The notes under the pieces were generated by a model that was not told the origin of the DNA, did not search any database, and was given only the letters and a program-made list of their open reading frames with translations. DNA of 64,000 bases, taken from contig JAGDWD010000001.1 of the NCBI GenBank assembly GCA_023255955.1, forward strand, positions 1-64,000. Reading direction: 5' to 3'. A program made the position numbers and the translations under genes. Shown piece by piece: positions 27,596 to 47,771 of this stretch. This DNA is from Desulfurococcales archaeon (GTDB lineage: Archaea > Thermoproteota > Thermoprotei_A > Sulfolobales > NBVN01). Numbering within the stretch: position 1 is the first letter of the stretch; each line of letters opens with the position of its first letter.

Positions 27596-30500
27596 CTTTC
27601 AATCAATTCTATCGTTCGAACCCAGGTACGGAAAAAGATAGTCTTCGGCCCCGTTAGGGTGACTGAAATACTTTCAATTCTATCTTTTAGATTCTCTACA
27701 TTAGAGCTTTAACACCTGTACACGTAGGTATTGGTCGCTTTCAATTCTATCTTTTAGATTCTAATAAAATACTGAATTTAATATACAAGCTACATGAGAA
27801 AGTCCTTTCAATTCTATCTTTTAGATTCTTGATGTTAACGACCCGATTGTAGACAAGATTGTCGAGCTGGTCTTTCAATTCTATCTTTTAGATTCTCGTA
27901 CAGGACCAGACCGGGAGAGTTAGAGGAAAGGAACTATATGCTTTCAATTCTATCTTTTAGATTCGCCCGGAAGGTCTTCGACTACTACAGCAAGATGGTC
28001 GAGTTCAAGGTCTTTCAATTCTATCTTTTAGATTCCGATGGGTAGCATAGTCGTTAACGTATCAACAGCTACACCATCTCCCTTTCAATTCTATCTTTTA
28101 GATTCACTACGGACGGGAAACTCCTACTCTCGCTAGGGTAGCCTTTCAATTCTATCTTTTAGATTCCTGAGTGGTAGAAATTTCTTCTATAGAATTATTG
28201 GATTTCTACCTTTCAATTCTATCTTTTAGATTCCACAATATATCTCAATGCGAAGGCAAAGCAAGACTTCTCTGACATACTTTCAATTCTATCTTTTAGA
28301 TTCCTAGGACGACGAAGTACCAAGTAGACCACATATATAAAAACTTTCAATTCTATCTTTTAGATTCCAGTAGTGATAAATGAGCCCGCCCCCGCATTGA
28401 TTAACTTTCAATTCTATCTTTTAGATTCAACTTTTACTATCAAGAGAAATAGCAGAAAAACTCAGAGAGCTCTTTCAATTCTATCTTTTAGATTCATTCC
28501 AGAAGAAAATGCCATTTCTGATATATATCGCTGAGAATGACACTTTCAATTCTATCTTTTAGATTCCGGGAGGTTCCAAAAGAGAGTAAAGCAGCCATCT
28601 AACGTTGATCTTTCAATTCTATCTTTTAGATTCAGCGGTACCTCCCGTTAGTAGGGAGGTGATGTTCTAAGATGAATACTTTCAATTCTATCTTTTAGAT
28701 TCTTTAAGTATGGAGGGGCGACTATACCAGCAAACACAGACCTCTTTCAATTCTATCTTTTAGATTCAGTAGAAGTAGATGGCTAGCCAGTACTCAACAC
28801 CTACGGGGACCATCTTTCAATTCTATCTTTTAGATTCACGACTACATCTTCACTATTCACTTAGCGAGCAAGGAGTTCCCTTTCAATTCTATCTTTAGAT
28901 TCACCATCCTGATCATAGGCACCTCCCTCAGGAGGGAGGAGATCGCTTTCAATTCTATCTTTTAGATTCAGAGGAGTAGTGTACGTACTACTCTAGTTAG
29001 TTTATTCAAGCGCCTTTCAATTCTATCTTTTAGATTCGTCTCACCCACGCAGGTAGGAAATACTTTACTATACGAGACACACTTTCAATTCTATCTTTTA
29101 GATTCCCTACCAGCTTTACTTATTTGCTGACTTAGCAGAATTCCCTAACTTTCAATTCTATCTTTTAGATTCTGGAGGAACACTGAAGTATATCATGGCT
29201 CAACAATAATAATTGACTTTCAATTCTATCTTTTAGATTCTACTAACTACAGCTATAATACCCCCCAGCAGTCCCTCGCGTTTTACTTTCAATTCTATCT
29301 TTTAGATTCGTGAGGCACTCACCGAGGAGGGCCCTCAGAATACCGTACACAGTCACTTTCAATTCTATCTTTTAGATTCAAACCGTCGCCTCGAAAATCT
29401 GTGTACCGTTACCATAGAACCACTTTCAATTCTATCTTTTAGATTCAGAATTTCAAGTGTCTTTAACACCCCTCTCGGTAGAATACTCATCTTTCAATTC
29501 TATCTTTTAGATTCAGATTCGTAGCTCTATCCCATGGTGAAGTTTTTTCACGTTCTATGCTCTTTCAATTCTATCTTTTAGATTCGCCTACCACCACGGC
29601 TAGGGCTACCTGCAGCAGTATCCATGCTACTTTCAATTCTATCTTTTAGATTCACAGTCAGCAAATTAGTGAGAACTATCACGGTGGTAATGCTTTCAAT
29701 TCTATCTTTTAGATTCTCGATATTCCTATACCTCGGTTCTAGCGTGGTGATTGTACCTTTCAATTCTATCTTTTAGATTCGCTGATACTCATTAACTTGG
29801 TGTTCTGAATGCTTTTCATGTCCTTTCAATTCTATCTTTTAGATTCAGCTTCCTGAACTGTGCCATGTAGTTCCTTCCTTTCTCGGTTACTTTCAATTCT
29901 ATCTTTTAGATTCAGCCAGCTTCGTGGACACATCACCTAAGCTCACCATAGTCTCTTTCAATTCTATCTTTTAGATTCTCGCGATAGATGCGTTCATGGG
30001 CGTGCTCCAGGCTAACCTACCTTTCAATTCTATCTTTTAGATTCATAAGGGGTTCATTGATGACGTGAGGTCCAGGTTCGCTACTTTCAATTCTATCTTT
30101 TAGATTCCTAAACTCCTCGTTGATGTCGCTGACCACCTCATTAAGGCTTTCAATTCTATCTTTTAGATTCCTACCCTCATAATCCCACCAGCTTACTCCT
30201 TTGTCTATTGCCTTTCAATTCTATCTTTTAGATTCGAACGGAATATATCCGCTAGTTGTAGTAGTAGATAACACGATCTTTCAATTCTATCTTTTAGATT
30301 CACGTGACTGTGAGCCTCATCCCGGGCTTCGCCTACGCTGTGAGCCTTTCAATTCTATCTTTTAGATTCTATCCCTACTTTATGAAGCTTTCTGTAGCCC
30401 GCTAAATAACTTTCAATTCTATCTTTTAGATTCGATAGCGTAAAAAACACATACTTCTTACGTAAACACGTCTTTCAATTCTATCTTTTAGATTCGCGAG

Positions 30501-30823
30501 CTATTCACGCAGAATGTCCAAGTCATTATTATCTTTCAATTCTATCTTTTAGATTCACCCCGCATGATTATCCCGATGCTTATCCCCATAGATTTATCTT
30601 TCAATTCTATCTTTTAGATTCATGTGAAGAATGCTGATGCGATAGTGTTCATAGAGATATCGAATAGCCTTTCAATTCTATCTTTTAGATTCGTCATCTC
30701 CTCTGCGAAGTTGTATAATGCAGCACCTATCGCCTCTTTCAATTCTATCTTTTAGATTCCATTGATAAAGGGGAGAGCGGGGCGAAGCCGTTCAAGGAGC
30801 TTTCAATTCTATCTTTTAGATTC
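27596..30823 (-). CRISPR. CRISPR array 1: 24-nt repeat CTTTCAATTCTATCTTTTAGATTC (+ strand; transcript GAATCTAAAAGATAGAATTGAAAG), ~48 clear repeats plus one degenerate distal repeat
   Basis: Direct reading of repeats from 27671 to 30800 with spacers ~36-46 nt; degenerate unit at 27596; leader on right. Confidence 0.98.
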
Positions 30824-31030
30824 TGTGTCGTGGGCCTACATCTCTATCTATCAGATTCAGATCCAAGTATTATTTGTGTCTAGATATTTAAGCTTTTCCT
30901 CCGGGTTGGGTTGTGAGCTCCCTAGAGTATTTTTAAGTGGGGTCCACGAAGCCTCCCAACCCAGTCTATACATCAAGATCCTATGGTGGACATAGGAAAA
31001 CTTAAGGTATCTAGCTATAGAATGGTTCTT
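30824..31030 (-). promoter_or_regulatory. CRISPR leader, array 1
   Basis: Nearly identical to sequence adjoining array 2 (43883-44065); minus-strand TATA-like GGAAAAGCTTAAATAT ~60 bp from first repeat. Confidence 0.85.
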
Positions 31031-31090
31031 AGAGCTACATGAACTTAGCGACCGAAAAGCTTTTATTTGCTTACCCTTCTTCCTATGGTT

Positions 31091-31175
31091 ACCTTAGGAA
31101 AAACTAGGGAGGTTTTTCTATGTAATGGAATGTAGGGGTTTATAAGTTTTTCTGTTTTCTGGTCTCGTGTGTGTT
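31091..31175 (+). promoter_or_regulatory. Conserved ~85-bp promoter element, copy 2
   Basis: Same as 1-85 and 44151-44237; GAAAAAC-N7-GTTTTTC and tttataag TATA-like box. Confidence 0.8.
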
Positions 31176-31240: not shown

Positions 31241-32122
31241 TTGTTGGGGTTAGCTTTGGTTGGGGTTTTCGTGGTGTCTACTGTGGGTACGTCTTTGTTT
31301 AGGAATATCTCGAGGTCTCGGGATTATTTGGAGGTGGTTGGTAGGTACGGTGTTGAGAGGTGGGTTGACATGTCCTTGGATTCTCCTGATAATAGCTATC
31401 CTTTGGGTAGGGTCTGCGGGCTTTCTGGGGATGGGTACCTGGTTAACGCGTTCGTGGATTTCATACGTTCGGATCCTAGGGCTTCCTGTGCTGAGCTTGC
31501 TGGTGTCCTGGCTGTTGTTGAGGATGTTTGGGCTAGGTATGGTAAGGTACCTATTGAGGTGGGTCTCTACCCTACGGCTAGCTGTACGTCCTACCTAGCC
31601 TCGAGGATTCTTGAGAGGTACTTGGTGTCTGGGGGGTTTAAGGTGTCTGTCAGGGTTGTCGAGGCTATCAGGTCTGTAGAGGGGTTTGATGAGGGGTTGG
31701 CATCGCTTGTGGATCAGGTTATTGGTGACGTTGTTGACTACTCGAGGAGGGGGTTTAAGGTCTACGTAAACGCGACGCCCGGGTTTAAGGCTGAGACCTC
31801 CTTCCTCGTTATAGCCTCCATACTAGCCGGGGCATCAGCTATCTACTACATACACGAAAGCTTTAGGAGGCCTGTTAAGCTACCTATAGTACCCCTAGAA
31901 GTACGTAGGGACTACCTCAGCTTGCTGGAGTCCATAGCTAGGGAGGGGGGTGTGGAGCTAGCGTACGTGTACAGCACTCTAGGCATGACGGAGGCGGACG
32001 TGAAGGACCTTGAGGACAGGTACCTAGCTTACTCAGATGAGGCTAGGCTCAAGCCTAGGAAGTGGGTTGTGAAGCTACTTGAGAAACTGAGGTGGTTGCG
32101 GGAACCTGAGGAGGGGCTCTAA
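31241..32122 (+). CDS. CRISPR-associated CARF protein, APE2256/TIGR02619 family (Crn1-type ring nuclease candidate)
   Basis: FIRSDPRASCAELAGVLAVVEDVWARYG..YVNATPGFKAETSFLVIASILAGASAIYYIHESFRRPVKLPIVPL. Confidence 0.82.
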   Translation: MLGLALVGVFVVSTVGTSLFRNISRSRDYLEVVGRYGVERWVDMSLDSPDNSYPLGRVCGLSGDGYLVNAFVDFIRSDPRASCAELAGVLAVVEDVWARYGKVPIEVGLYPTASCTSYLASRILERYLVSGGFKVSVRVVEAIRSVEGFDEGLASLVDQVIGDVVDYSRRGFKVYVNATPGFKAETSFLVIASILAGASAIYYIHESFRRPVKLPIVPLEVRRDYLSLLESIAREGGVELAYVYSTLGMTEADVKDLEDRYLAYSDEARLKPRKWVVKLLEKLRWLREPEEGL

Positions 32123-32542: not shown

Positions 32543-34195
32543 TTACTCCAGGCACTTCTTCGCGATCTCGCTGATGTTCTCTAGGTAGAGTACTCTAGTT
32601 ATCGTGACCTCCCCACCCTGCCTAACTATGGAGAAGCTCCTAACTAGGCTGTACTCTAAGCCTGCGTGTGCTGCTAGGTTCCTGCACACCCTGCTGACGT
32701 CCATGTCCCTACCCATCTCCTTGATTCTCATCACGTCCTTCACCTCATTTTCATGTATCTCAAGTACCTTACTGATACTCTCCACGCACTCACCCCTACT
32801 CTCGTTGAAGTACCTGTACAGAAGTACGTTCACATCGACCTCACTACCCGATCTTAAGGACTCCTCGATGTTCTCCGGCACTACACTGTAACTCCTCAGG
32901 AGCTTACCGCATTTCCTTACGTACTCCTCCAGGTTCTTAATGAAGCTGTTTAGGTTCTCGTTCTCTCTTTTTACCATGAGGCTCACAGCCTTATATCCTC
33001 TCTTGTCGAGGGCTTTGCGCGCTCCCTCCAGGAACTCAGCTAGGTTGTTAGGGCTCCGCAGCTCTCCGCAGATGTCTTTGAGTACCTTAGTCAGGGAGTA
33101 CCTAGTTAGGGTAGTCCACATACTCGTCTTTCCATAGTCCACGACCTTGGAGTCACGGTCTATGTTGGGTATGTAGCTAAACTCAGCTGGATCCAGCTCC
33201 CTCTCGTACCTACTCAACTCCTCACATACGTTGAAGCCTAGTTTAACGCGGTTCTCCGTGTCGGGGCCCGGCAACATGTAGGATTCTGGGTACGCTAGAG
33301 CAGCCATACCGTTCCTAACTAGGTTGAGGAAAGTCACCGCTCTATCGATTAGGTTGAGAACGTCTTCTGGGACTGCTTCACCACCCCGCTTCTTCAGGTC
33401 CTTGTGGACCTCCTTCACGGGCTCTGTATCGAAGTTCTTTAGTGACATGAGGCCCCTAATGAACGATATACCGTACTGTAACTGACTCACATCAGCTACC
33501 TCCACTACTGGTACTTCCCCGACTTGCCCCGATGCTACCTGGGCAGTACCCCCACCCCTAGTTGCCGGGGCTGGTGACTGCACCGGCATACTGTTCAGTA
33601 TGACCACCCTACCCTCCTTCCCGAAGAGGATGGCCGCGGCAATAGTTGCGTAGAGAGTCGCTACTACCTGGTAGTTCACACCGTGGGTTAGGTCCATGAA
33701 GACCCACTTAAACTCCTCCCCCGGCCTCCCCAATCTCGCGTAGAGGTCTATGAAGACCTTGTTGAATATGTGTTCGATGGAAGCACCGAACCTGTAGCCG
33801 TGGTAGAGGCCTAGACCGGGCACCACAACAATATCCACCCTACCTAGGAGACTACCCGAGAACCCCGAACAACACGAACACCCCCTCACCATCTCCTCGA
33901 AGAACCCTAGGTAGAGTTCCTGAGCCCTCCTACGTAGCTCCACCCCACCACCGACCTCACCAGGATTCACAATAGTGTCCGCTCCGTAGATCACTACATC
34001 GACATCGTAACCCCACCCGAGAAGCGCCGCAGCAATAGCTACCGTCGAGCTCCTAGCCCTACAAACAACAGGATGAAACTCCTCGAAAGCCCTATGCTTA
34101 ACAGAAACCCAGTACTCAACCTCCCTCCAACCAGCCGGTAAACCCCATGAAGCCACTAAAAGAACCCTACCACCCACGAACGAAACCCCAAACAA
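32543..34195 (-). CDS. csx1: CRISPR-associated CARF-HEPN RNase, Csx1 family (second copy)
   Basis: WVFMDLTHGVNYQVVATLYATIAAAI (DxTHG), CRNLAAHAGLEYSLV (RX4H HEPN). Confidence 0.85.
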   Translation of the reverse strand: MFGVSFVGGRVLLVASWGLPAGWREVEYWVSVKHRAFEEFHPVVCRARSSTVAIAAALLGWGYDVDVVIYGADTIVNPGEVGGGVELRRRAQELYLGFFEEMVRGCSCCSGFSGSLLGRVDIVVVPGLGLYHGYRFGASIEHIFNKVFIDLYARLGRPGEEFKWVFMDLTHGVNYQVVATLYATIAAAILFGKEGRVVILNSMPVQSPAPATRGGGTAQVASGQVGEVPVVEVADVSQLQYGISFIRGLMSLKNFDTEPVKEVHKDLKKRGGEAVPEDVLNLIDRAVTFLNLVRNGMAALAYPESYMLPGPDTENRVKLGFNVCEELSRYERELDPAEFSYIPNIDRDSKVVDYGKTSMWTTLTRYSLTKVLKDICGELRSPNNLAEFLEGARKALDKRGYKAVSLMVKRENENLNSFIKNLEEYVRKCGKLLRSYSVVPENIEESLRSGSEVDVNVLLYRYFNESRGECVESISKVLEIHENEVKDVMRIKEMGRDMDVSRVCRNLAAHAGLEYSLVRSFSIVRQGGEVTITRVLYLENISEIAKKCLE

Positions 34196-34555
34196 GCTTC
34201 AGCAAAACAAGCTATTATACAGAAAAAGCCACACCACCCAAAAACTCAGGAAGGCAACCTATTCCTAGCTGCTACAGACCCATCACACAGGTTGAGGATC
34301 CCCAAGACAGTCTCAGCAATGAACCTCTGCGGAGGAGGTCTCCGAAGTTCGAAGAGGTATTCCTGCTTTAACGGGATTATGGAGAGGTTCCTGATCGTTG
34401 AAGTTTCCTTCGATAGAGTTTCGTAAGCCTTCTCCAGGACGCTTCTAGCTAGGTTCGTCCTAACCTCAGCTACGGAACGCGGAACTCCACAAGAAAATCC
34501 CGAACCTTCAGGGAAAATATATTTACTTCTTCTCTAAATTGCTTCGGTGTCCTGA

Positions 34556-35185
34556 GTGAGACTCTTCATAGTTCCACTAGGGTTCCATGAGGATATAGTA
34601 CTACGCGCTCTCATACGCTTAGGAGCTCAGCCTGGTGATGTAGTGTACACTGTAACGTGTGGCCCAGCTGCTGAGGCTGTTAAAAGGGCTTTTGAGTCTC
34701 TGCAGGCTCAATGCCTTAGGCAAGGTCTTCCTGAGCCTAAGCTCCTCGAGCTTAACTGCCGGGATTTTTACGGATCGATTAGGGCAGTTAGGTCTACTCT
34801 CTCTGAGTATGGTGAGGCAGAGGTATTCTTCTGTAGTGGTGGGGGCTTAAGGATACTAACGCACATAGTTGAGGTAGCTCTGTTCGTTACTAGGAGACCC
34901 TTCAACCTCCACTACGAACCTGAGGGCGAAGGAGCCAGTGTAGTTGACGTCCCTAACACACTATTTAGGGTGATGTACGAGGGAGTTAGGGGAATTAGAG
35001 AGAAGGTCCTAAGGAAAGTTATAGAGAACCCTGGAATAGCTGTAAAGGAGATATCGCAGATGCTGGGTGTTGAGGAAAAGACTGTACAAAATGCTCTCAC
35101 ATGGCTTAAGGAGCGCGGACTTGTAGTTAGGAAGCCGAAGGGGAGGGCCAGGCCGACAGAGATCGCAGTAGCTCTCTACGGCTAG
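34556..35185 (+). CDS. csa3: Csa3-type CARF-wHTH transcription regulator
   Basis: LGFHEDIVLRAL, CSGGGLRILTHIVEVAL, wHTH IAVKEISQMLGVEEKTVQNALTWLKERGLVVRKPKGRARPTEIA. Confidence 0.87.
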   Translation: MRLFIVPLGFHEDIVLRALIRLGAQPGDVVYTVTCGPAAEAVKRAFESLQAQCLRQGLPEPKLLELNCRDFYGSIRAVRSTLSEYGEAEVFFCSGGGLRILTHIVEVALFVTRRPFNLHYEPEGEGASVVDVPNTLFRVMYEGVRGIREKVLRKVIENPGIAVKEISQMLGVEEKTVQNALTWLKERGLVVRKPKGRARPTEIAVALYG

Positions 35186-35500
35186 ATAATCATACAAATC
35201 CCTGAAAAATAGGGAAAAGTAACCTGAATCCCTGCACACGAGATAATAGGGTTCTTAGAGTCCTAGTAGCGGTGTACACCCAGTGATAAACAAGACGTTA
35301 TTACTGGAAAGCATTGGAGAGATTCATACCCAGTTAGGAAGAGATACAGTCAACGAGGAGTGGGTACGTTGCCGAGCTACCGCTAGAACCGAGGACCTAC
35401 CTCGAGCTAGGGGATAATATGAGTTACGTATACAGAATGCTACGCAATAACATATTTATAGTGAATGTGTGTATACTTAATTGTGTAATTTGGTGAGAAA

Positions 35501-42536: not shown

Positions 42537-43882
42537 CCACCAATTCTATCCTTTAGATTCAAATACAACTTCGAGATCAATAAGCATAACCCATTCAACA
42601 TAGACCTTCAATTCTATCTTTTAGATTCCTGGTGATACTGTGGTATCAAATCCCCAACCCCCAAACTTCTTTCAATTCTATCCTTTAGATTCCTTGAGGG
42701 GCGTGAGGGGCGAACCTATCTAACCATAAGATATGAGCTTTCAATTCTATCTTTTAGATTCGGAGCTAGGGCACGACGTCCTAGTGCTCTGTGCCGGTAC
42801 TGGCCTTTCAATTCTATCTTTTAGATTCACGAATTCGACAAGACACGACCATCCGCCGATGCTTTGTTGCTCTTTCAATTCTATCTTTTAGATTCGTACT
42901 GCTTATCTGCTTTATGAACCTCTCAATGAACTTGTCCTTTCAATTCTATCTTTTAGATTCAAGTAGTAGAGACAGCAATAGAAATACTGACATCGCATAA
43001 GTACAGCTTTCAATTCTATCTTTTAGATTCCTCTGACTATCAGGTCATTACTGTCTACCACTACTCAAAAAGCTTTCAATTCTATCTTTTAGATTCATCC
43101 TCGTTAGTACATCTATCAGTTGCTTGAAGTCAGTAATCCTTTCAATTCTATCTTTTAGATTCGACCGCAAAAATACTTAGTGAGCAGCTCCACAGCTACC
43201 TTTCAATTCTATCTTTTAGATTCCTACACTTCGGTGTTGGCGTGAATCCAGCCAACGTTAAGGTGCTTTCAATTCTATCTTTTAGATTCGGTGCTGGTGA
43301 AGTGTCGATAAGATTCAGCTTCCCAGTTCTTTCAATTCTATCTTTTAGATTCTCGGCTTCCCCATAGGCACGGCCCCGTATATACTGTTCGTTCTTTCAA
43401 TTCTATCTTTTAGATTCAGATCCATCTGGTGAGATCTTCACGGCATAGTCGTCCACTTTCAATTCTATCTTTTAGATTCGAGGGGGAGCCTAGGCAACCC
43501 TCTTACCCTCCTGCCTCTTCTTTCAATTCTATCTTTTAGATTCGGGTGTGGCTTTCCCGCGGGGTCGACCCGTTCGGCCCTAGAGCTTTCAATTCTATCT
43601 TTTAGATTCGAAAGCCTCGCCTTTTAAGGCGGGGATGGATAGAAAAGCTTATACTTTCAATTCTATCTTTTAGATTCTGGGGTCTGCCTGGAGCCAGAGG
43701 ACAAGACCATCACGAACCCTTTCAATTCTATCTTTTAGATTCAGAGCATAGTCCGGGTTGGTCACTAGGAATTTGAGGACTTCTGAGTCTTTCAATTCTA
43801 TCTTTTAGATTCTTAGAGCAAGTTCTAATGTAGCCAATCCTTCTGCTTATTTAGTGTACTTTCAATTCTATCTTTTAGATTC
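42537..43882 (-). CRISPR. CRISPR array 2: same 24-nt repeat, ~21 repeats, leader on right; left-end repeats degenerate
   Basis: Repeats read from 42537 to 43859; first three carry substitutions (e.g. TATCCTTTAG). Confidence 0.98.
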
Positions 43883-44065
43883 TGTGTGTTGGGCCTGCAT
43901 CTCTATCTATCAGATTCAGATCCAAGTATTATTTGTGTCTAGATATTTAAGTTTTTCCTCCAGGTAAGTCGCTCAGCTCCCTAGAGTATTTTTAAGTGGG
44001 GTCCGCGAAGCCTCCCAACCCTGTCTGTACATCGAGATCCTATGGAAACCATAGGAAAACTGATT
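43883..44065 (-). promoter_or_regulatory. CRISPR leader, array 2
   Basis: Same sequence as array 1 leader with few changes. Confidence 0.85.
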
Positions 44066-44150
44066 AAGTTTATATGTAGAGAAAAGTGATGGAGTATCGT
44101 AGGCTTATAGACCGAAAAGCTTATATTGGCTCAGTGGTTTTCCTAAGGCT

Positions 44151-44237
44151 ACCTTAGGAAAAACTAGGGAGGTTTTTCTATGTAATGGAATGTAGGGGTT
44201 TATAAGCTTTTCTGTTTTCTGGTCTCATGTGTGTTCC
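44151..44237 (+). promoter_or_regulatory. Conserved ~85-bp promoter element, copy 3 (adaptation operon promoter)
   Basis: Same as 1-85 and 31091-31175; precedes csa1-cas1-cas2-cas4. Confidence 0.82.
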
Positions 44238-44395
44238 TTTGTTTTTCTTGGGTTGTTCCTATGGTTTCTTTGGGTTGTTTTGGTTGTGGTTGTTTGGGGT
44301 GGTTTGGGTTTCTTCCTATGGTTTTCTTGGGTGGGTTTTCTGGGTTTCTTGGGCTGTGTGTTTAGTTTTTCTGTGTTGGGGTTTGGTGGTGGTTT

Positions 44396-45259
44396 GTGTT
44401 GGTTGTTAGGTCTGAGGTTTTGTTGAGGTGGTTGAGGGTTTTGAGGTCTTATGCTGAGAGCTACCCTGTTGAGCCTGGTTTGAGGGGTTGGTCGTGGCAG
44501 TTTCCTCCGGTTAGGCCCAGGGCTTTTCTGGGGCTTTCGGTTTATGATGTTGCTTCGTACTGTCCTAGTAGGAGGGATGTGTGGCTTAGGAGGGTTGCTG
44601 GGGTTAGGGCTCAGCCTTCTCAGGCTATGAGGTTCGGTTTGGAGGTTCACGAGGTTATATCTAGTGTTGTTAGGGTTGTCAGGTCCTATCTGAGGGCTCC
44701 GAGGGACCTGCCCAGGGTTTTCAAGGCTGTTGAGAAGCTCGTGGTGTCCAGGACTGCTGGGCTGGCCTCGCCTGAGTTGGTTAGGCTTGTCGAGGAGGTT
44801 GCTTGGCTCACCTACCACACAGTGGTCTCCGAGTGGTTCTGGTCTCAGTGTAGCTCGTTCCTAGCACCAGCAATGCTCTCCCTGAGTGAGGTGAGGGTTG
44901 ACGGGACCCCGGTAGGGCTCAGCAGTAACCTCAGGGTTGACGCGATACCGGTATCGAACGTAGTCGTGGACTTCAAGGTAGGTAGGAGGAGTGATAACCA
45001 CGAACTATCCGTAACAGCCTACGCGATGGCCCTGGAAGCGAGCCTGGAGGTCCCGGTCGACTACGGGCTACTAGTGTACATAGGCTGGAACGGAGGTGTT
45101 CAAGTAGATGTTAAGGGCGTGTACGTAGGGCCTGACCTGAGGAGGACCTTCATAGACTCGAGAGATGAGGTCATAGACATGGTCCTCAGCAGTAGGGAAC
45201 CACCCAAAGCAGTAGAGTGCCCCAACACGTGCCCCTACCTCGAGGTGTGCGGTAAGTGA
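44396..45259 (+). CDS. csa1: Csa1 (Cas4-family) adaptation protein
   Basis: GLSVYDVASYCPSRRDVWLRRV..RFGLEVHEVI..VDFKVGRRSDNHELSVTAYAMALE..ECPNTCPYLEVCGK Cys cluster. Confidence 0.88.
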   Translation: MLVVRSEVLLRWLRVLRSYAESYPVEPGLRGWSWQFPPVRPRAFLGLSVYDVASYCPSRRDVWLRRVAGVRAQPSQAMRFGLEVHEVISSVVRVVRSYLRAPRDLPRVFKAVEKLVVSRTAGLASPELVRLVEEVAWLTYHTVVSEWFWSQCSSFLAPAMLSLSEVRVDGTPVGLSSNLRVDAIPVSNVVVDFKVGRRSDNHELSVTAYAMALEASLEVPVDYGLLVYIGWNGGVQVDVKGVYVGPDLRRTFIDSRDEVIDMVLSSREPPKAVECPNTCPYLEVCGK

Positions 45260-47117: not shown

Positions 47118-47771
47118 TTGTTTCTCTACGGGGGTTTAGTGGGGAGGAGGTTCATCATATCCCTAGGCTTCCACGAGGATAGGGCTATCAGGAGATTGAC
47201 CATGTCCTCAGCCTCCAGGGACGATGAGGTCTTCCTAATCACGGCGTCGACCTCCCCAGCTGTCTTGAGGGCCTACGACTCCCTAGTTAGTTTCTGCAGG
47301 AAGGCCGGGCTCCGGGAGCCTAAGCTCGTTGAGGTTCCTTCAGACCTCTACGGGGGTGTTGCTAAGATAGCTGAGCTAGTTCTAGGCTTTGAAGGGCCGG
47401 TCGTGGTCGATCTATCTGGTGGTATGAGGTACCTAGCTGTCCTGGGGATGCTGGCTCTGTTCCTAGCTAGGCGTAGAGCTGTTGTCTATGTCCAGCCTGA
47501 GGGTGAGGGGCAGGACCTGGAGATCCCGGAGTCTGTTATGGACCTAGCACACACGTCTCTCCAGGACCTCGAGAGATCCATCCTAAAGATGGTAGCTGGG
47601 AGTGAGGGACTTAGAGTTGAGGATGTGGCTAGGTCCTTAGGTAGGTCCCCTAAGACGGTTGCTAACGCTGTATCTAGGCTTCAGAGGCTGGGTCTAGTGG
47701 TTAGGAGGGGTAGGTCGGGCGGTCTCCACCTGACGAGTGTTGGTAGGCTAGCAGTCCTACTGGGTGTCTAG
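47118..47771 (+). CDS. csa3: Csa3-type CARF-wHTH regulator (second copy)
   Basis: SLGFHEDRAIRRL..VVVDLSGGMRYLAVLGMLALFLARRRAVVYVQPEGEG..wHTH RVEDVARSLGRSPKTVANAVSRLQRLGLVVR. Confidence 0.88.
   Translation: MFLYGGLVGRRFIISLGFHEDRAIRRLTMSSASRDDEVFLITASTSPAVLRAYDSLVSFCRKAGLREPKLVEVPSDLYGGVAKIAELVLGFEGPVVVDLSGGMRYLAVLGMLALFLARRRAVVYVQPEGEGQDLEIPESVMDLAHTSLQDLERSILKMVAGSEGLRVEDVARSLGRSPKTVANAVSRLQRLGLVVRRGRSGGLHLTSVGRLAVLLGV

What the first reader, a model, noticed from the sequence alone, without database searches (positions are those of the whole stretch)
44038..44159. Paired palindromic operator TCCTAWGG-N3-CCWTAGGA in the leader/csa1 intergenic region
Seen directly: TCCTATGGAAACCATAGGA at 44038-44056 (perfect 8-3-8) and TCCTAAGGCTACCTTAGGA at 44141-44159 (perfect 8-3-8), start-to-start 103 bp, lying between the array 2 leader (leftward transcription) and the adaptation operon promoter (rightward). 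This is about ten helical turns, compatible with looping or cooperative binding. Inference: binding site of one of the two Csa3 CARF-HTH regulators encoded at 34556 and 47118, since Csa3 proteins are known to regulate the csa1-cas1-cas2-cas4 operon in Sulfolobales.
Basis: partly seen in the sequence, partly recalled or inferred. Interest (0 to 1): 0.85.

Follow-up and report, generated by a model that had tools for sequence, protein, structure and literature searches.

The report
Paired Csa3a-type operators in CRISPR leaders
Two matching 19-letter mirror-image DNA sites about 100 letters apart sit upstream of every CRISPR memory array whose start can be seen in this archaeon, and of many arrays across its order; they are probably docking sites for the CRISPR-linked regulator Csa3a, extending a motif known as a single site in Sulfolobus to a paired one.

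Summary
They are not specific to csa1. The same pair (102 bp) lies upstream of array 1 next to a Crn1-type ring-nuclease gene (30979/31081) and of an orphan array on another contig with no cas gene beside it: 3 of 3 visible leaders.

In four same-genus genomes the core reduces to TCCYA-N9-TRGGA while the spacing stays 99-103 bp. Across 217 genomes of the order, 15 of 16 such 19-bp pairs and 29 of 32 assessable 18-bp pairs (TCCC-N10-GGGA) lie next to CRISPR arrays, in five families. The 19-bp reversed-pattern control gave none.

The csa1 promoter carries three further weaker sites at positions conserved in relatives. The adaptation-operon Csa3 (47118) groups with Sulfolobus Csa3a and accompanies the pair; Csa3_34556 has no same-genus ortholog and different (17-bp) sites around it.

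Best reading: a paired, diverged version of the Sulfolobus palindrome CAPPa, with Csa3a binding beside the array promoter and at a core promoter pointing away from the array. Binding was not tested. Strict helical phasing is not supported across species. New variant of a known kind.

The parts
44038..44056 (.). pal1 of array 2, array-proximal operator TCCTATGGAAACCATAGGA, 155 bp from the first repeat
   Evidence: conserved position in 11 leaders of 4 species
44141..44159 (.). pal2 of array 2, distal operator TCCTAAGGCTACCTTAGGA, 14 bp after a rightward BRE/TATA
30979..30997 (.). pal1 of array 1, TCCTATGGTGGACATAGGA
31081..31099 (.). pal2 of array 1, TCCTATGGTTACCTTAGGA, about 140 bp before the crn1 ORF
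44235..44253 (.). weaker csa1-promoter site TCCTTTGTTTTTCTTGGGT (-164 from the csa1 match start)
   Evidence: profile rank 9 in window; relatives have a site at about -163
44257..44275 (.). weaker csa1-promoter site TCCTATGGTTTCTTTGGGT (-142)
   Evidence: relatives at -141
44314..44332 (.). weaker csa1-promoter site TCCTATGGTTTTCTTGGGT (-85)
   Evidence: relatives at -84
44113..44126 (+). predicted rightward BRE/TATA CGAAAAGCTTATAT ending 14 bp before pal2
   Evidence: consensus score only; region conserved in 11 leaders
43945..43958 (-). predicted leftward array promoter BRE/TATA (GGAAAAACTTAAAT on the minus strand), 79 bp array-side of pal1
   Evidence: consensus score, conserved
44198..44212 (-). 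second, distal leftward BRE/TATA-like element (GAAAAGCTTATAAAC on the minus strand), nearly invariant in 11 leaders
   Evidence: direction inferred from the BRE-like side
43883..44215 (-). array 2 extended leader module (similarity between leaders drops beyond it)
42738..43882 (-). CRISPR array 2 (repeat reads CTTTCAATTCTATCTTTTAGATTC on +)
27671..30823 (-). CRISPR array 1
31241..32122 (+). Crn1-type ring nuclease gene beside the array 1 leader
   Evidence: PF09651 1.1e-27; NF040951 1.2e-33 but under its curated cut-off
44396..45259 (+). csa1 (Cas4/Csa1), first gene of the adaptation operon
   Evidence: TIGR01896 1.3e-73
47118..47771 (+). Csa3 of the adaptation operon, Csa3a clade: preferred binder
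34556..35185 (+). second Csa3, less favoured binder
   Evidence: 17-bp TCCC-N9-GGGA at 34498 and 35199

Best explanation
The two palindromes are operators for the adaptation-operon Csa3 (window 47118), a Csa3a-type CARF-wHTH dimer. They form a fixed two-operator module that is part of each CRISPR leader. pal1 lies on the array side, upstream of the leftward pre-crRNA promoter, in the place of the single Csa3a/CAPPa leader site of Sulfolobus. pal2 lies about 100 bp further out, just after the TATA of a core promoter that points away from the array. Three more weak sites sit in the csa1 promoter. A Csa3a dimer at pal1 would support array transcription and/or Cas1-Cas2 delivery to the leader. A dimer at pal2 would occlude or tune the outward promoter, which reads toward csa1 at array 2 and toward the ring nuclease at array 1. 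Array expression, spacer uptake and possibly cA4 removal would then share one regulator. Shown here: sites, conservation, CRISPR linkage, Csa3a kinship, promoter geometry from a consensus score. Inferred: that Csa3a binds, the sign of regulation, any cA4 effect.
For: Three of three visible leaders in the own genome carry the pair, including an orphan array. Four same-genus genomes (G000, G132, G133, G134) keep the arrangement at 11 leaders, with outer bases TCCYA/TRGGA paired in 80-100% of sites and inner bases drifting. Of 16 order-wide 19-bp pairs, 15 are beside CRISPR arrays, and the reversed-pattern control is 0 in 217 genomes. Of 32 assessable 18-bp pairs, 29 are beside arrays or repeats in families f1, f3, f4, f9; 3 more lie at contig ends. 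Csa3_47118 orthologs are present in all four same-genus pair-bearing genomes. In sister genera G130, G137, G140 the Csa3_47118 homolog directly precedes csa1, with a palindrome of this kind in the gap and another upstream of csa3 in G140. The Csa3 tree puts 47118 with Sulfolobus Csa3a (95/89), and that clade, except one truncated ORF, reads K-T-x-x-N in the recognition helix, whereas the Csa3b clade reads differently. G125 carries two Csa3 with KSEKTVRN. Published: Csa3a footprints on the S. islandicus csa1 promoter (PMC4333418); mutating the leader-distal Csa3a motif cuts adaptation (PMC9456107); CAPPa presence tracks Csa3a (PMC8699464). pal2 follows a rightward BRE/TATA by 14 bp (f1 genus, f7) or 2-3 bp (most of f3).
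Against: No binding data for this protein or these sites. Purified S. solfataricus Csa3a bound CAPPa without specificity and without a cA4 effect (PMC8699464; see also PMC8844856). Promoter calls rest on a consensus score without a formal significance test and were not clear in Sulfolobaceae. G007 carries three pairs, yet its operon regulator has no detectable CARF domain and its kinship to Csa3 rests on a weak wHTH match (E 0.003 in a two-sequence comparison). One G007 leader keeps only a single palindrome, so the pair is not indispensable. Spacing varies enough to argue against strict same-face cooperativity.
Confidence: 0.68

Rival explanations
1. The second Csa3 (34556) binds the pair instead of 47118.
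For: 34556 is also a CARF-wHTH with an EKTVQN recognition helix and branches next to the Csa3a clade.
Against: No ortholog was found in the same-genus pair-bearing relatives. Two of only three TCCC-N9-GGGA 17-mers in the window flank its own gene (34498, 35199), suggesting a different site length.
Confidence: 0.13
2. A host transcription or chromatin factor unrelated to Csa3 (for example an Lrs14/MarR-type regulator) binds the palindromes as part of leader architecture.
For: Many winged-HTH dimers prefer such sites; the pair persists at orphan arrays and in G007, whose operon regulator lacks a detectable CARF domain.
Against: Pairs are almost absent away from CRISPR arrays. Same-genus genomes without csa1/csa3 hits (G131, G135, G136, all incomplete) have no 19-bp pair. 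The palindrome accompanies csa3/csa1 in sister genera.
Confidence: 0.12
3. The palindromes act as RNA or DNA hairpins (attenuator, terminator, or Cas1 stem-loop docking).
For: The two reported copies are perfect 8-bp stems with 3-nt loops, and Cas1 of S. islandicus prefers a leader stem-loop (PMC9456107).
Against: In same-genus relatives inner-arm pairing falls to 20% at positions 6 and 8 while the outer bases stay. No Rfam match except a sub-threshold CRISPR repeat. The published Cas1 stem-loop is at the leader-repeat junction, not 155-280 bp away.
Confidence: 0.04
4. The shared pair only reflects copying of leaders within and between genomes, without function of its own.
For: Leaders within a genome are clearly copies, and leaders recombine (collapsed G007 leader).
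Against: The same architecture occurs in leaders of different families with different repeats. The segment between the sites has diverged to 67-81% identity within the genome while its length stays within 1 bp.
Confidence: 0.03

Closest known systems
CAPPa, CRISPR-associated promoter palindrome of Sulfolobaceae (PMC8699464), Csa3a site of S. islandicus (PMC4333418, PMC9456107)
   Same: TCCC...GGGA outer half-sites; found in CRISPR leaders and upstream of the csa1 cassette; tracks Csa3a; rare elsewhere
   Different: Here 19 bp (N11) instead of 18 bp (N10), half-site TCCT in this genome with full inner symmetry; two copies 102-103 bp apart at each leader rather than one; present at an orphan array and at the array beside a ring-nuclease gene; extra weak sites before csa1
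S. islandicus leader-distal Csa3a motif (-143 to -94 from the first repeat; PMC9456107)
   Same: Upstream of the array promoter and part of the leader; pal1 is its positional counterpart at 155-156 bp from the first repeat
   Different: No second site about 100 bp further out is reported in the papers read
Csa3b sites of S. islandicus (csa1 -168 to -128, csa5 and cmr promoters; PMC7480081)
   Same: CARF-wHTH regulator acting on csa1
   Different: Described as unrelated to CAPPa (PMC8699464); Csa3b-clade recognition helices differ from 47118

Membership tests
CAPPa | Palindrome with TCCC/GGGA outer half-sites | tested here: met
   TCCY/RGGA in the window, TCCC/GGGA in most relatives; the window itself mostly has TCCT/AGGA
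CAPPa | 18-bp length (N10 between half-sites) | tested here: not met
   Window sites are 19 bp; Sulfolobaceae sites measured at 18 bp. The paper's legend prints TCCCN8GGGA but its text says 18 bp
CAPPa | Located in CRISPR leaders and upstream of the acquisition cassette | tested here: met
CAPPa | Generally absent elsewhere in the genome | tested here: met
   Own-genome sites with up to 1 mismatch are all in the three leaders
CAPPa | Co-occurs with Csa3a | tested here: met
   in G007 only by operon position and a weak wHTH match
CAPPa | Bound by Csa3a | not testable with these tools
   needs EMSA or footprint
CAPPa | Single copy per leader as described | tested here: not met
   Paired in window, relatives and several Sulfolobaceae leaders
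Csa3a regulators (protein 47118) | CARF domain with DxSGGMR-type motif plus wHTH | tested here: met
   PF22662 1.1e-27, TIGR01884 9e-26; DLSGGMR present
Csa3a regulators (protein 47118) | Recognition-helix residues E173, K174, N178 (S. solfataricus numbering, PMC8699464) | tested here: inconclusive
   K and N conserved, E is P in 47118 (SPKTVAN)
Csa3a regulators (protein 47118) | Groups with Sulfolobus Csa3a, not Csa3b | tested here: met
   support 95/89

The most novel reading that the evidence does not exclude
CRISPR leaders across the order carry a conserved two-operator switch in which Csa3a dimers at two sites about 100 bp apart act together on the array promoter and on an outward promoter, jointly setting array transcription, leader accessibility for spacer integration and, by gene placement, adaptation-gene and ring-nuclease expression, possibly through a bridged loop answering cA4.
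Probability: 0.25. Interest if true: 0.8.

Novelty: new variant of a known kind. Interest (0 to 1): 0.62.

Why it matters
Csa3a is proposed to couple type III cA4 signalling to spacer uptake, but published binding data conflict and treat CAPPa as a single site. If leaders normally carry two sites about 100 bp apart, tests with short or single-site probes may have missed the real binding unit. The order-wide pair gives clean probes, natural controls (orphan arrays, a collapsed single-site leader) and a simple signature for finding true leaders and array orientation in archaeal genomes.

Tried and rejected
Broad pair pattern TCCY-N11-RGGA over the order: matches as frequent as the reversed control, so unusable; tightened to TCCYA-N9-TRGGA. 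Helical phasing as the reason for the spacing: not supported across species (99-103, 92-108). RNA hairpin: disfavoured by decay of inner pairing and no Rfam match. A first search for CAPP-like sites in Sulfolobaceae failed because it demanded inner symmetry; repeated with outer half-sites only. Five own-genome matches with 2 mismatches were not pursued, apart from a look at the one on C3. No structure prediction was run; sequence kinship to solved Csa3 (2wte, 6w11, 6wxq) was already clear.

Full report
Observation. The consensus search found a second pair in the same window at 30979 (one mismatch) and 31081, 102 bp apart, and nine matches in all against 1.5 expected. A whole-genome search found a third pair at C12:240618/240720, also 102 bp apart. 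All own-genome matches with at most one mismatch belong to these three pairs.

Context. Each pair lies on the leader side of a CRISPR array with the same repeat, 155-156 bp from the first repeat (one search prints 154 for array 2 because the repeat end was entered one base late). At array 2 the next gene outward is csa1; at array 1 it is a Crn1-type ring nuclease (PF09651). Beside the C12 leader there is no cas gene: the outward neighbour is a HAD-like hydrolase (my reading of its sequence) that reads toward the array. A fourth array on C5 starts 32 bp from a contig end and shows the same leader start, so its distal part cannot be seen. The pair is therefore a leader element, not a csa1 element.

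Relatives. Three other same-genus genomes with csa1 (G132, G133, G134) have the same layout upstream of csa1, and G132 and G133 also at further arrays. An alignment of 11 leaders shows the two sites, a rightward BRE/TATA-like element before pal2, a nearly invariant GTTTATAWG element beyond pal2, and an AGGGAGG block, while much of the sequence between the sites has drifted. Site comparison shows the core as TCCYA-N9-TRGGA: the outer arms pair in 80-100% of same-genus leader sites, the inner arms only in 20% at positions 6 and 8. This fits a protein-dimer site rather than a hairpin. A profile built from sites of this genome and relatives picks out three weaker csa1-upstream sites in the window (44235, 44257, 44314) at -164, -142 and -85, matching sites at about -163, -141 and -84 in relatives. 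Those three were not used to build the profile; the window's four palindromes were.

Order-wide test. The 19-bp pair pattern was found at 16 places in 7 of 217 genomes; 15 places are beside CRISPR arrays and the reversed control is zero everywhere. These include two other families, G007 (f3) and G125 (f7), with different repeats. Spacing was allowed to vary from 90 to 119 bp and came out at 99-103 at every array. The 18-bp version (TCCC-N10-GGGA twice) gave 35 places in 18 genomes, against 9 for the reversed control. Three lie at contig ends without a visible repeat; G034, G097 and one G024 place are not beside arrays. In the csa1-linked leaders of Sulfolobaceae, up to five show a perfect or degenerate second site 92-94 bp beyond the known one. 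Genomes and leaders are not independent, so these counts are not probabilities.

Which regulator. Csa3 47118 sits in the csa1-cas1-cas2-cas4-csa3-cas6 operon. Its orthologs (47-56% identity) are in G132, G133 and G134, whereas the second Csa3 (34556) has no ortholog there. In sister genera the 47118 homolog directly precedes csa1 with a palindrome in the gap (G130 and G137 19 bp, G140 20 bp), and G140 has another (19 bp) upstream of csa3. The tree places 47118 with Sulfolobus Csa3a with support 95/89, and the clade shares K-T-x-x-N in the recognition helix except for one truncated ORF. Of the S. solfataricus residues reported as strictly conserved (PMC8699464), K and N are kept in 47118 and E is replaced by P. 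G125 carries two Csa3 with KSEKTVRN. G007 has a 202-aa protein in the csa3 slot of the same operon; it has no Pfam match, and its wHTH similarity to 47118 is weak (E 0.003), so its identity as Csa3 is inference.

Mechanism. In S. islandicus, Csa3a footprints just upstream of the csa1 core promoter (PMC4333418) and a leader-distal Csa3a motif supports adaptation (PMC9456107); CAPPa is described as one motif per leader (PMC8699464). pal1 here is in the corresponding place relative to the array. pal2 follows a BRE/TATA-like element pointing away from the array by 14 bp in the f1 genus and f7, and by 2-3 bp in most f3 leaders, the two settings differing by about one helical turn. That places it where an archaeal repressor would block polymerase. 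The promoter score is a plain consensus count with single reversed controls, so this is suggestive only. Taken together: Csa3a at pal1 favours array transcription or integration, Csa3a at pal2 tunes the outward promoter. Binding, sign and cA4 dependence are inferred. Published S. solfataricus binding was non-specific and cA4-independent (PMC8699464; see PMC8844856), which is the strongest caution.

Novelty. CAPPa and its link to Csa3a are known. I found no description of the paired arrangement, of 19-bp versions, or of its spread outside Sulfolobaceae in the papers read; most subscription papers were not available. Garrett et al. note conserved leader sequence over the first 230 bp in Sulfolobales (PMC4390879), which would span both sites there. 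I file it as a new variant of a known kind.

Noticed in passing
43898-43917 and the same place in array 1, C12 and relatives: A degenerate half-copy of the CRISPR repeat (CATCTCTATCTATCAGATTC) lies in the leader a short distance from the first repeat and tracks repeat changes in relatives (for example CTATCGTTCAGATTC in G133).
   Followed up: partly
34498-34514 and 35199-35215: Two TCCC-N9-GGGA 17-mers flank csa3_34556, the first just before its TATA-like box, the second about 300 bp before the next operon (35501 onward); only one other such 17-mer is in the window.
   Followed up: partly
L150:1180 (G007): A fourth G007 leader has a single palindrome whose left flank matches pal1 and right flank matches pal2 of its sister leaders, as if recombination between the two sites had removed the middle.
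   Followed up: partly
44166-44185 and the same place in 10 other leaders: A conserved AGGGAGG followed 6-9 bases later by ATG, which in this genome is at once followed by a stop codon (ATG TAA / ATG TGA); may be a minimal reading frame or the complement of a leftward start site.
   Followed up: partly
31241-32122: A ring-nuclease-type gene (expected to degrade cA4) sits directly beyond the array 1 operator pair, so a cA4-sensing regulator may control a cA4-removing enzyme.
   Followed up: no
L053, L055, L056 (sister genera G130, G137, G140): csa3 lies directly upstream of csa1, with one palindrome of this kind in the gap.
   Followed up: partly
32543-34195: Csx1-type CARF protein of 550 aa; only its first 200 residues match a family well.
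   Followed up: no
G000:C3:30076: An isolated single copy of the CRISPR repeat without a recognisable leader.
   Followed up: partly
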